Positions 18,799 through 22,681 of a stretch of DNA of 64,000 bases are shown one piece after another. Position 1 is the first letter of the stretch. Each line of letters begins with the position of its first letter. The translations under genes and the position numbers were made by a program. Origin of the DNA: Acidobacteriota bacterium (GTDB lineage: Bacteria > Acidobacteriota > Thermoanaerobaculia > Multivoradales > Multivoraceae); NCBI GenBank assembly GCA_028875725.1, contig JAPPCR010000023.1:469620-533619 (forward strand), in the 5' to 3' direction. Below the pieces are notes generated by a model, which saw only the letters and a list, made by a program, of their open reading frames with translations, was not told where the DNA came from and made no database searches.

Positions 18799-20010
18799 CT
18801 ATCTGCGACGACCCGGCATCACCAGCGGTTCGATCGGCGCCTTGAGCACGACCGTCTCTTCCTTCGGCACGTAGCAGACCGTCTCGCTGCAGGCCTGGTA
18901 GACCACGTCGACCGGAATCTCGATCTCGGTCGGCTTGTCCTGAATCGGCCAGTTGAGAATCTCGGCGTTCAGGGCGATCGGGATCGCAATGTCGATCGTG
19001 CCTTCCTCGTAGACGTTGAGCGTCACGTCGAGCTGGGGGAACTCGCGCTCGGACGTCGCCGGGTAGACCGGCTCGCCTGTTCTCACGCCCTTGGTCGGCA
19101 CGACGGTCGCCGTGGACGCGATGAAGCCGTCCGGCAGGGGGTCCGCGTAGATGTGGTAGCCGTCGGCGACCTCGAACCGCACGTGGAGCGTGCTCCTGTA
19201 CTCGAACTTGAGCGCCTCGTCGGCGAGGAAGACAGACACTTCGACGTGCTCGTCGCCCAGTTCGGCAGCGGGAACCTCGTGCTTGGCGAGGATGCGGCCG
19301 ATCGCGCTGTCGCGAATCGTCCCGGCCGAAGTGCGCGTCGCGTAGTGGCGGTGGAAGAACTTCTCCGTCACCTGGCCGTCACGGTCCGTGACGTAGACGC
19401 CCGGGAAGGGAATCCCGTAGAACCCCTTCTGCGTCGCCCGGTTGAGCACGTCCGCCTCGGGATCGATCGTCGTGTTCAGAATGCCGAAGCGCTTGATGAC
19501 CGCGGAGTCGGCATCGGAGAGCAGGTCGTAGGTGACGTCCCGATCCTCCGCGAAGGCCTTCAACTGCTCCTGCGTGTCGTAGCTGATGCCGTAGACCTTG
19601 ATGTCCTCGGCGTCGAAGAGTTCCAGGTTGTCTTGCAGCTCGACCAGCTGCGTGCGGCAGTACGGTCACCAGACGGCGGAACGGTAGAAGACGACGACCG
19701 CCTTCGAGTCGCCCCGGTCCGCGTGGAAGTCGATCAGCTCGCCGTCCTGGTTCGGCAGCTCGAATTCGGGCAGTCGCTCGCCGATGGCCGGACCGGTCGG
19801 GAACTCGTGTTCCGCCGGGTAGCGGCGGCCCGGGTGGCTCGTCGGCACGGGAACCGTGATGCCGAGATCGTCCTGCCGAGCCTCCGGCAACTGGTTCTCG
19901 TGCGCGCCCTTCACTCTCTCGTTCTCGTTCTCGTCGCCGTCCTGGGCAAACGCCGGAACGGCCAGGAACATCGTGACAAGGGCGAGCAAGGCAAGTCGGC
20001 CTCTCTTCAT
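18799..20010 (-). CDS. Predicted selenoprotein: exported peroxiredoxin-like / DsbD-alpha fusion with UGA-encoded Sec115
   Basis: 403 codons with one in-frame TGA (19666-19668, codon 115). Signal peptide MKRGRLALLALVTMFLAVPAFAQ; a thioredoxin-fold redoxin domain from about 75 to 250; then a DsbD N-terminal-like domain (about 260-400) ending with VVYQACSETVCYVPKEE. The TGA falls exactly where the peroxidatic/redox cysteine belongs: VVFYRSAVW-TGA-PYCRTQL, i.e. U-x-x-C with Cys118. Homology continues across it (LQDNLELFDAEDIKVYGISY). A hairpin with a GGUCG apical loop begins 14 nt after the TGA. Thus recoding to selenocysteine is favoured over a pseudogene. It would reduce peroxides or disulphides in the periplasm. 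ATG 20010 has a GAGGGAG ribosome site. Confidence 0.85.
19635..19651 (-). promoter_or_regulatory. Bacterial SECIS-like hairpin
   Basis: On the coding strand GCAGCT-GGTCG-AGCTGC forms six perfect base pairs closing a five-base loop that contains GGUC, the loop sequence recognised by SelB in E. coli formate dehydrogenase mRNA. It starts 14 nt after the UGA, and the loop GGUC lies 20 nt after it, within the known bacterial window. It lies within the reading frame, as bacterial SECIS elements must. Confidence 0.75.
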
Positions 20011-20081: not shown

Positions 20082-20996
20082 CTAGAACGGTGACCAGGCG
20101 GGGTTGCTGTTGGATCCTGTGCCCGTCAGTCGCATCGGATTGGAGCCATCCAGGTTCATGACATAGATCTCCCTCCCTCCGCCGCGCGAAGAATCGAAGG
20201 CGATCCGGGTGCCGTCGGCCGACACCGAAGGGTTGGAGTCGGCACCTGGGGCGGTGGTCAGACGGCGCTTGTCGGAGCCATCGACGTTCATGATGTAGAT
20301 CTCATAGTTGCCGTTCTGCGGTGCCCCGTCGCGATCGGTGGAGTAGACGATCTGCCTGCCGTCGGGTGTCCAACTGGGGACCTCGTCAAGAGCACGAGTG
20401 AACGTCAATCGCTGCTGGTTGGTGCCATCGACGGCGTTGGCCAGATAGATCTCCGGGTCGTCCCGGTCACCGTCGGCTTCGAAGGCGATCCACAAACCGT
20501 CGGGCGACCAGGCGACGAAGTTGTTTACGCGCCCCAGAGGATGGTCTTCGGTGAGCTGCGTGAGGTTGTATCCCCAGTTTCCGGCGTCGACGTTCGTACG
20601 CCACACCTGAGAGCTGCCGCTGCGATTCGAATCGAAGGCGATCATCGAGCCGTCGGGCGACCAGGAGGGGCCGCCGTCGTTGGCCGCGTGGCTGGTGAGA
20701 CGGACGACGTTGGAGCCGTCGGCGTTCATGATGTAGATGTCGGCGTTGTCGTTGCGAGATGATGCGAATGCGATCCGGGTGCCGTCGGGCGACCACGTCG
20801 GGGCACCATCGAAGCCCGGATTGTTGGTCAGCCGCGTCAGGTCGGAGCCACCTTCGTTCATGACGTAGATCTCCGGGTTGCCGTCCTGATTGGATACGAA
20901 GGCGATCCTGGAGGAGTTGTTCTGTGCAGCCGCTGGCTGCACATGTGTTGCAGTCGTGACGGCAAACAGAAGGCAGATGAAGAGAACGGGACCCAT
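20082..20996 (-). CDS. Secreted TolB-like beta-propeller (PD40 repeats)
   Basis: 304 aa. Signal peptide MGPVLFICLLFAVTTATHVQPAAAQ. At least six PD40/WD40-like blades with the repeat SPDGTRIAF followed by EIYVMNxDGSxxxRLT, starting near residue 32 and running to the C-terminus (PAWSPF). This matches the C-terminal propeller of TolB and related periplasmic proteins, but there is no TolB N-terminal domain, so it is not tolB itself. Probably a periplasmic binding scaffold. ATG 20996 gives the cleanest signal peptide. It diverges from a sulfatase gene with a 47-bp gap, suggesting a shared regulatory region. Confidence 0.8.
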   Translation of the reverse strand: MGPVLFICLLFAVTTATHVQPAAAQNNSSRIAFVSNQDGNPEIYVMNEGGSDLTRLTNNPGFDGAPTWSPDGTRIAFASSRNDNADIYIMNADGSNVVRLTSHAANDGGPSWSPDGSMIAFDSNRSGSSQVWRTNVDAGNWGYNLTQLTEDHPLGRVNNFVAWSPDGLWIAFEADGDRDDPEIYLANAVDGTNQQRLTFTRALDEVPSWTPDGRQIVYSTDRDGAPQNGNYEIYIMNVDGSDKRRLTTAPGADSNPSVSADGTRIAFDSSRGGGREIYVMNLDGSNPMRLTGTGSNSNPAWSPF

Positions 20997-21043
20997 CGCG
21001 TTGATCTCGTAGGCTATCGCCCCAACCACTCGAAAGGACGAGA

Positions 21044-22681
21044 ATGATGAATCGATGCGGCGCACGACGCGGCCTGGTCGCCCTCGGACTCGCGGTGGCC
21101 TTCGCGGCCGGAACCGTGGGCACGGCTGCACAGTTTCAGCCCGCCGAGATCGGTCCGACCCAGACCATCGACTGGCAGTCCGGCACCGATCCCCAAGGAC
21201 GGCCCGCCGGCGAGAGACCGCCCAACATCGTCGTCATCCTCGCCGACGACCTGGGCTGGAACGACCTGAGCTGGCTCGGCGGCGGCGTCGCGGGCGGCAC
21301 GGTGCCGACCCCGCACATCGACTCGCTGGCACGTGACGGCGTCCACTTCGCCAACGGCTACTCGGCGAACGGCACCTGCGCGCCGTCACGAGCCGCCCTG
21401 ATGACCGGTCGCTACGGCACCCGCTTCGGTTTCGAGTTCACGCCGACGCCGCCGGGGTTCGCCACGATGGTGCCCCGGCTCTCGAGCACGGAAGGCAGAC
21501 TCCGGCAGACGAGCGGCAACACGGAAGGGGCTTCGCTTCCCATCGACGAGAAGGGTGTGCCGCCGTCCGAGATCACGCTCGCCGAACTGCTCAAGCCGGC
21601 CGGCTACCACACCGTGCACATCGGCAAGTGGCACCTCGGTGTGGGCGACGGCATGCGGGCCCACGAGCAGGGCTTCGACGAGAGCCTGCTCATGAGGAGC
21701 GGCCTGTACCTGCCCGAGGACGACCCGAACGTCGTCAACTCGAAGCAGGAGTTCGATGGGATCGACCGTTTCCTGTGGCGCTTCATGCGCTACGAGGCGT
21801 CTTTCAACGACACTCCCGCCTTCGAACCCGGCGGGTACCTGACCGACTACTACACCGACCAGGCGGTCCAGGTCATCGAGGCCAACAAGGACCGGCCCTT
21901 CCTTCTCTACCTGGCGCACTGGGCGGTGCACACGCCGCTCCAGGCGCTGCGCGCCGACTACGAGGCGCTGTCCCACATCGAGGAGCATCGCCTGCGGGTC
22001 TACGCCGCGATGGTGCGCTCACTCGACCGCAGCGTCGGCCGGGTGCTCGAGGCGCTGCGCGAGAACGGCCTCGAAGAGAATACGCTCGTCTTCTTCACCT
22101 CCGACAACGGGGCGCCGGCCTACATCGGTCTGCCGCGCGTCAACGAGCCGTTCCGCGGCTGGAAGATCAGCTTCTTCGAGGGCGGCATCCACGTGCCGTT
22201 CCTCCTGAAGTGGCCTGCTCGCCTCAGCGCAGGCCAGGTCTACGAAGACCCGGTGCACGGCTTCGACATCTTCGCGACCGCGGCAGCCGCGGCCGGAGTC
22301 GATCTGCCCGGCGACCGGACAATCGACGGCGTCGACCTGGTGCCGCACGTCCTGGGTGAGGTCGAAGGCGCGCCGCACGACCGTCTCTTCTGGCGCACCG
22401 GCGACTATCAGGTCGTCCTCGCCGACGGCTGGAAACTCCAGATCAGCGAACCCCCCGGGGGAGTATGGCTCTTCAACATGAAGAAGGACCCCACCGAGCA
22501 GCACAACCTCGCCGACTCCGAGCCGGAGCGGGTCGCGGCCCTGAAGAAGCTCCTCGCCGAGCACAACGAGGAGCAGGCGCCGCCGATCTGGCCCTGGGCC
22601 ACCCGAAGCCCGGTCAACATCGACAAGACGCTGCTCGACCCGGACGCTCCGGAAGACGAGCACATCTACTGGTACAACTGA
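21044..22681 (+). CDS. Sulfatase, cysteine type, secreted
   Basis: 545 aa. Signal peptide (about 1-30, ending AAGTVGTAAQ). Metal motif IVVILADDLGWNDLSW near 62, activation motif CAPSRAALMTGR with Cys112 for formylglycine, GKWHLGVGDG near 196, and FFTSDNGAPAYIG near 350. It should hydrolyse sulfate esters of a polysaccharide or glycan in the periplasm. It is only family-level similar to the other sulfatase here and keeps a different loop after the metal site (GGVAGGTVPTPHIDSL). A second ATG directly follows (21047). Confidence 0.87.
   Translation: MMNRCGARRGLVALGLAVAFAAGTVGTAAQFQPAEIGPTQTIDWQSGTDPQGRPAGERPPNIVVILADDLGWNDLSWLGGGVAGGTVPTPHIDSLARDGVHFANGYSANGTCAPSRAALMTGRYGTRFGFEFTPTPPGFATMVPRLSSTEGRLRQTSGNTEGASLPIDEKGVPPSEITLAELLKPAGYHTVHIGKWHLGVGDGMRAHEQGFDESLLMRSGLYLPEDDPNVVNSKQEFDGIDRFLWRFMRYEASFNDTPAFEPGGYLTDYYTDQAVQVIEANKDRPFLLYLAHWAVHTPLQALRADYEALSHIEEHRLRVYAAMVRSLDRSVGRVLEALRENGLEENTLVFFTSDNGAPAYIGLPRVNEPFRGWKISFFEGGIHVPFLLKWPARLSAGQVYEDPVHGFDIFATAAAAAGVDLPGDRTIDGVDLVPHVLGEVEGAPHDRLFWRTGDYQVVLADGWKLQISEPPGGVWLFNMKKDPTEQHNLADSEPERVAALKKLLAEHNEEQAPPIWPWATRSPVNIDKTLLDPDAPEDEHIYWYN

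What the first reader, a model, noticed from the sequence alone, without database searches (positions are those of the whole stretch)
18799..20010. Exported peroxiredoxin/DsbD-alpha fusion with UGA at the catalytic cysteine
The frame is continuous in the same phase on both sides of one TGA (19666-19668). Seen: the TGA replaces the first Cys of a C-x-x-C-like motif (SAVW-TGA-PYC) and conserved thioredoxin-fold sequence goes on afterwards into a DsbD-alpha domain. Known: this is exactly where selenocysteine appears in other redox selenoproteins. Any gene caller would split it into a 5' piece and a 3' piece.
Basis: partly seen in the sequence, partly recalled or inferred. Interest (0 to 1): 0.85.

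Follow-up and report, generated by a model that had tools for sequence, protein, structure and literature searches.

The report
Selenocysteine redoxin fused to DsbD-alpha domain
An Acidobacteriota gene really does read a UGA stop codon as selenocysteine in the active site of an exported redox enzyme that carries its own DsbD-like electron-donor domain, a selenoprotein design found across the phylum that gene callers split in two.

Summary
Confirmed. The minus-strand gene 20010..18799 is open on both sides of one UGA (codon 115, 19668..19666). The genome encodes tRNA-Sec(UCA), SelA, SelB and SelD, while UGA is still the commonest ordinary stop (467 of 832 long frames). UGA is kept in every full-length homologue found in its own clade, down to about 60% identity. 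Elsewhere in the phylum the same two-domain protein has Cys (TGC/TGT) instead, with at least 7 Sec/Cys switches on a tree. A 6-bp hairpin (GCAGCU-GGUCG-AGCUGC, loop 20 nt after UGA) fits a bacterial SECIS. It is intact in 80 of 81 UGA genes but 1 of 8 Cys genes (Fisher p = 9e-9), shows compensatory pairs, and freezes six consecutive codons in 32 orthologues. In two genomes a homologue sits in the sel operon. The N-terminal domain is a Prx-like UxxC redoxin: Sec replaces the Thr of the peroxiredoxin TxxC motif, not the peroxidatic Cys. The C-terminal domain is DsbD-alpha/ScsB-like with its Cys pair. Prx-like UxxC selenoproteins are known; this fusion appears undescribed. Likely role, inferred: a DsbD-fed envelope selenol peroxidase or disulfide reductase. 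A new variant of a known kind.

The parts
18799..20010 (-). whole selenoprotein gene, 403 residues with U115, TAG stop at the low-coordinate end
   Evidence: translation with TGA read; start Met conserved in 19 homologues
19945..20010 (-). N-terminal signal peptide, MKRGRLALLALVTMFLAVPAFA|QDG
   Evidence: sequence inspection: basic start, hydrophobic core, AFA before Q; no lipobox; poorly conserved but hydrophobic in orthologues; no predictor was run
19363..19785 (-). AhpC-TSA (Prx-like) thioredoxin-fold domain, residues 76-216
   Evidence: Pfam PF00578 6.1e-30; AlphaFold model matches BcpB/Bcp4/ResA
19666..19668 (-). in-frame UGA, codon 115, selenocysteine; U of UxxC
   Evidence: conserved UGA in the orthologues, Cys in 8 homologues
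19657..19659 (-). Cys118, resolving partner of U115 (position of the peroxidatic Cys in true Prx)
   Evidence: invariant in A2; aligns with C_P of Bcp
19635..19651 (-). bacterial SECIS upper hairpin GCAGCU-GGUCG-AGCUGC; stem begins 14 nt, loop 20 nt after UGA
   Evidence: pair counts, frozen codons, Sec/Cys contrast, 17-mer folds -8.9 kcal/mol, z -2.6
18844..19203 (-). DsbD-alpha (nDsbD)-like C-terminal domain, residues 270-389
   Evidence: Pfam PF11412 1.9e-12; fold matches only ScsB N-domain and nDsbD at E<=0.001
18874..18891 (-). catalytic Cys pair C374-x4-C379 of the DsbD-alpha domain (QACSETVCY)
   Evidence: invariant in 18 of 18 C-terminal domains; aligns with the E. coli nDsbD pair QGCADAGFCY

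Best explanation
It is a genuine selenoprotein gene. SHOWN by comparative evidence: the ribosome must read UGA-115 as selenocysteine, directed by the SECIS hairpin just downstream and the cell's own SelA/SelB/SelD/tRNA-Sec; the product is one protein with a Prx-like thioredoxin-fold domain (UxxC) followed by a DsbD-alpha domain with its redox Cys pair, exported judging by its N-terminus. INFERRED: in the periplasm Sec115 attacks an oxidised substrate, Cys118 resolves the intermediate as a selenenylsulfide, the fused Cys374/Cys379 pair reduces it, and the membrane DsbD of the same genome recharges that pair from cytoplasmic thioredoxin. It thus works like the ScsB/DsbD-TlpA-PprX relay collapsed into one polypeptide. 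The most likely substrate is a hydroperoxide (about 0.5); a protein disulfide or mixed disulfide is almost as likely (about 0.4).
For: tRNA-Sec 74 bits with UCA anticodon; selB 350 bits with its pieces joined, selA 443, selD 253 bits, all over cut-off. UGA in all same-clade homologues. Cys counterparts with the same architecture; at least 7 Sec/Cys changes on a tree built with that column masked. SECIS stem intact in 80/81 UGA genes vs 1/8 Cys genes, p = 9e-9; distinct 36-mers 41/42 vs 1/8, p = 6e-7; compensatory pairs GC/CG/UA at 18-34 and GC/AU at 21-31. Six consecutive degenerate codons frozen at the hairpin, P = 1.7e-8. selA in 23/28 genomes with the UGA form and 2/7 with only the Cys form. 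The homologue sits directly beside selA-selB in one genome and behind selB-selD-selA in another. DsbD-alpha by Pfam, profile and fold. Full-length DsbD in the genome. Relay precedent ScsB-TlpA-PprX (PMC5403849).
Against: No protein or selenium was measured. The MFE fold of the isolated 49-nt stretch prefers another hairpin that pairs UGACC with GGUC, though that one shows no covariation and is broken in the sister clades. Five genomes with the UGA form gave no selA hit (several are fragmented or incomplete). Export rests on inspection of the N-terminus. Peroxidase activity is not shown: the PxxxTxxC peroxiredoxin signature is absent. DsbD as partner is inferred.
Confidence: 0.88

Rival explanations
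1. The UGA is a real stop and the downstream ORF is a separate gene or a decayed remnant.
For: ORF callers see 129-aa and 254-aa frames; TTG at 19563 could in principle start the second.
Against: The split falls inside one AhpC-TSA domain; purifying selection on both sides; coding signal runs straight through; Cys in place of UGA in intact homologues; SECIS kept only in UGA genes.
Confidence: 0.01
2. Sequencing error or recent nonsense mutation of a Cys codon (TGC/TGT to TGA).
For: One base separates TGA from TGC/TGT.
Against: The same TGA is in independent assemblies of some 17 genomes of the genus and family and in Vicinamibacterales at about 60% identity; codons downstream frozen for an RNA hairpin.
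Confidence: 0.003
3. UGA is reassigned to another amino acid (such as Trp) genome-wide.
For: None beyond the open frame.
Against: TGA ends 467 of 832 long frames in this genome; homologues show Cys, not Trp, at the site; complete Sec machinery present.
Confidence: 0.002
4. Sec is inserted, but the protein is a disulfide reductase/isomerase-type oxidoreductase (ResA/TlpA-like) rather than a peroxidase.
For: WUPYC is a thioredoxin-like motif; the Prx signature PxxxTxxC is lost; ResA is among the best fold matches; reviews file the UxxC proteins as Prx-like thiol:disulfide oxidoreductases (PMC9312934, PMC13188914).
Against: Best sequence and fold matches are Bcp/AhpE peroxiredoxins; other Prx-fold genes of the genome also use Sec (TAGU, WAPYUGC), pointing to peroxide chemistry.
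Confidence: 0.4

Closest known systems
[quoted passage not shown] 'Prx-like 1' of the GOS survey)
   Same: AhpC-TSA domain, Sec at the first position of UxxC, SECIS directly downstream, widespread Cys homologues (PMC1088965, PMC2398784, PMC9312934)
   Different: Those surveys describe the redoxin domain; none of the texts searched mentions a fused DsbD-alpha domain. The GOS paper's Prx-like fusions are to Secretin_N-like or unknown domains; one of its unknown domains with conserved Cys could not be compared here.
Sec-containing peroxiredoxin PrxU (TxxU)
   Same: AhpC-TSA fold and Sec in the active-site loop
   Different: Sec is the peroxidatic residue there; here it sits at the Thr position and Cys118 occupies the peroxidatic position. 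The same genome has a separate TAGU peroxiredoxin.
DsbD / ScsB alpha domain (nDsbD)
   Same: nDsbD fold and QxC...CY redox pair
   Different: Normally the N-terminus of a membrane electron transporter; here a C-terminal domain of a soluble enzyme, C-x4-C instead of E. coli C-x5-C (the same genome's DsbD also has C-x4-C).
Caulobacter ScsB-TlpA-PprX envelope peroxidase pathway
   Same: Envelope redoxin fed with cytoplasmic electrons through an ScsB/DsbD domain (PMC5403849)
   Different: Separate proteins and Cys-based; here donor domain and selenol enzyme are one chain.
Neisseria PilB (thioredoxin-like domain fused to methionine sulfoxide reductases, fed by DsbD)
   Same: One polypeptide joins a DsbD-linked thiol domain to a repair enzyme (PMC5403849)
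   Different: Different domains, no Sec.
Rhodanese/DsbD fusion-like selenoprotein TsoB (NF045694)
   Same: Selenoprotein with a DsbD-related part
   Different: Rhodanese-based, UxxxxU motif (PMC13188914); unrelated catalytic domain.

Membership tests
bacterial selenoprotein gene | in-frame UGA with Cys in homologues | tested here: met
   8 Cys homologues of full architecture
bacterial selenoprotein gene | selA, selB, selD and tRNA-Sec(UCA) in the genome | tested here: met
bacterial selenoprotein gene | SECIS hairpin immediately downstream with G in a small apical loop | tested here: met
   6-bp stem, loop GGUCG, 20 nt from UGA; covariation and Sec/Cys contrast
bacterial selenoprotein gene | Sec present in the protein | not testable with these tools
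   needs mass spectrometry or 75Se labelling
Prx-like UxxC selenoproteins | AhpC-TSA domain with UxxC in place of TxxC | tested here: met
   Pfam 6e-30; U115 at T, C118 at C_P
canonical peroxiredoxin | PxxxT(S)xxC/U active-site signature | tested here: not met
   SAVWUPYC: Ser at the P position, U at the T position
canonical peroxiredoxin | peroxidase activity | not testable with these tools
   enzymology needed
DsbD-alpha (nDsbD) domain | nDsbD fold and sequence | tested here: met
   Pfam PF11412 47.7 bits, cut-off 25; the 11 fold hits at E<=0.001 are all ScsB N-domain or nDsbD
DsbD-alpha (nDsbD) domain | conserved catalytic Cys pair | tested here: met
   C374, C379 invariant
NCBIfam curated (seleno)redoxin families (SelL_rel_redox, WAxxUGC_long, TUGYCR, Bcp, ResA) | score over the curated cut-off | tested here: not met
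   best 68.4 bits against 140 (Bcp), SelL_rel_redox 44.9 against 120

The most novel reading that the evidence does not exclude
A phylum-wide, undescribed family of self-fed envelope selenoenzymes: a selenol redoxin that carries its own nDsbD electron-donor domain, so that cytoplasmic electrons reach a periplasmic Sec residue without a separate thioredoxin-like carrier. Its repeated Sec/Cys switches, including a Cys copy (L103) that still has the intact SECIS stem, give a natural series for testing what Sec adds.
Probability: 0.6. Interest if true: 0.6.

Novelty: new variant of a known kind. Interest (0 to 1): 0.5.

Why it matters
Automated ORF calling cuts this gene into a truncated redoxin and a headless one, and the same will hold for its UGA homologues across Acidobacteriota. 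Recognised whole, it points to selenium use in the cell envelope of this phylum and a Sec enzyme joined to its reductant domain. The family holds Sec and Cys forms in close relatives, with SECIS loss following Sec loss, which makes the open question of why bacteria keep or drop Sec directly testable by swapping U and C in one scaffold.

Tried and rejected
Real stop, sequencing error and code reassignment were each tested and rejected. The MFE alternative hairpin pairing UGACC with GGUC was counted and shows no covariation. Gene neighbourhood: neighbours (a PD40-type beta-propeller protein, a sulfatase, a GST-like protein, homogentisate dioxygenase; named from their sequences by inspection) are kept only within the genus, so no operon partner. 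A scan of 2.42 Mb of the same genome for further UGA genes by codon bias gave no convincing new family beyond Prx-fold ones; its strict form missed known paralogues and just over half the genome was covered. The full-length fold search listed only Prx/ResA-type matches at the top, so the C-terminal domain was folded apart.

Full report
OBSERVATION. On the minus strand, 20010..18799 reads as one 403-residue protein if the single TGA at 19668..19666 is translated; it is codon 115 in ...FYRSAVW-U-PYCRTQLVELQ.... An ORF caller gives two pieces. With the UGA read, Pfam finds AhpC-TSA (residues 76-216, 6e-30) straddling the UGA and DsbD_N (270-389, 1.9e-12) at the C-terminus. The N-terminus looks like a plain signal peptide (MKRGRLALLALVTMFLAVPAFA-QDG; inspection only).

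GENOME. The window lies in a 4.54-Mb genome of 98% completeness. It holds tRNA-Sec with UCA anticodon (74 bits), selB (350 bits with its pieces joined), selA (443 bits) and selD (253 bits). TGA ends 467 of 832 long frames used for training, so UGA is not reassigned. Close relatives are MAGs named Holophagales / Thermoanaerobaculia / Candidatus Multivorans thiocomprendens; that some are sponge-associated is from memory and was not tested.

CONSERVATION OF UGA. In 99 related genomes, every full-length homologue in the genus and family has TGA at this codon, as have Vicinamibacterales homologues at about 60% identity. dN/dS is 0.06-0.17 upstream and 0.08-0.29 downstream. A profile search of 396 genomes of the phylum found the two-domain protein in many families; some members are uninterrupted and have TGC or TGT at the site. 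With that column masked, a tree needs at least 7 Sec/Cys changes; Cys forms are scattered and the window's own clade is all Sec. The tree is a quick one with some long branches.

SECIS. A hairpin GCAGCU-GGUCG-AGCUGC starts 14 nt after the UGA with its loop 20 nt after it. This fits the bacterial rule of a small apical loop with a G close downstream of UGA (PMC1088965; the finer spacing rule is from my own knowledge). In 32 orthologues the six codons +5 to +10 (ACG CAG CTG GTC GAG CTG) are all invariant, although only 13 of 206 comparable degenerate columns are (chance for six given columns 1.7e-8). Over the phylum the six pairs are all formed in 80 of 81 UGA genes but in 1 of 8 Cys genes (Fisher p = 9e-9; by distinct 36-mers 41/42 vs 1/8, p = 6e-7), with compensatory changes GC/CG/UA at the base pair 18-34 and GC/AU at 21-31. 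Rows are related, so the p-values overstate independence, but the Cys losses are spread over the tree. The one Cys gene with an intact stem (L103) lies in a genome without a selA hit and looks like a recent Sec loss. The thermodynamic optimum of the isolated 49-nt strand is another hairpin, which lacks covariation.

SEL GENES AND CONTEXT. selA is found in 23 of 28 genomes with the UGA form and in 2 of 7 with only the Cys form. In G125 the UGA gene is followed by selA and selB; in G264 the order is selB, Ndh-SelD-like, selA, then the UGA gene (names of the selB and selD-like frames by inspection of their sequences). In the window itself the gene stands alone; its neighbours are conserved only within the genus.

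FOLD AND CHEMISTRY. AlphaFold gives a confident Prx-like core (pLDDT about 90 over residues 71-170) matching Bcp4, BcpB, AhpE and ResA. Against Bcp, U115 takes the Thr of TxxC and C118 the peroxidatic Cys. The C-terminal domain folded apart (pLDDT 89) matches, at E<=0.001, only the ScsB N-terminal domain and nDsbD; the PDB profile search also returns nDsbD first, weakly. The only invariant Cys/Sec positions are U115, C118, C374 and C379. The genome has one complete DsbD with alpha, membrane and gamma parts. I therefore propose the relay thioredoxin -> DsbD -> C374/C379 -> C118/U115 -> oxidised substrate. The chain is inferred; the ScsB-TlpA-PprX route is the precedent (PMC5403849). Peroxide and disulfide substrates are about equally likely.

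KNOWN AND NEW. Prx-like UxxC selenoproteins have been known since the Sargasso Sea survey or before (PMC1088965) and were abundant in GOS data (PMC2398784). The 2026 review lists them and one DsbD-related fusion, the rhodanese-type TsoB (PMC13188914). I found no description of a Prx-like/DsbD-alpha selenoprotein in the papers searched, and no NCBIfam model reaches its cut-off. Only an open-licence library was searched, so prior mention elsewhere is possible. I class it as a new variant of a known kind.

SAME GENOME. Six of 15 AhpC-TSA genes carry TGA: this one, two paralogous UxxC/DsbD_N fusions (C15:587025, C6:1109014), a UxxC form without DsbD_N (C6:1918407), a TAGU peroxiredoxin (C6:1764610) and a WAPYUGC protein (C23:426919). 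Three known Sec motif types of one fold therefore coexist.

Noticed in passing
G000:C6:1764610-1764987 (L154): A Bcp-type peroxiredoxin with TAGU: Sec at the peroxidatic position, the known TxxU class, in the same genome.
   Followed up: partly
G000:C23:426919-427251 (L162): WAPYUGC redoxin, resembling the known UGC-containing Prx-like / WAxxUGC class.
   Followed up: partly
G000:C15:587025-588008 (L142): Paralogous UGA fusion (UPPC) with DsbD_N whose conserved start gives no obvious signal peptide, so possibly cytoplasmic despite the DsbD-alpha domain.
   Followed up: partly
L169 (G125) and L170 (G264): Homologues of the UGA fusion are encoded inside sel operons (with selA-selB; with selB, an Ndh-SelD-like fusion and selA).
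   Followed up: yes
L103 (G360): Cys (TGC) homologue with a fully intact SECIS-like stem in a genome without a selA hit: apparently a fresh Sec-to-Cys loss.
   Followed up: partly
window 20082-21131, minus strand: Exported-looking protein with repeated TolB/PD40-like beta-propeller motifs just upstream of the selenoprotein gene, conserved beside it only within the genus.
   Followed up: no
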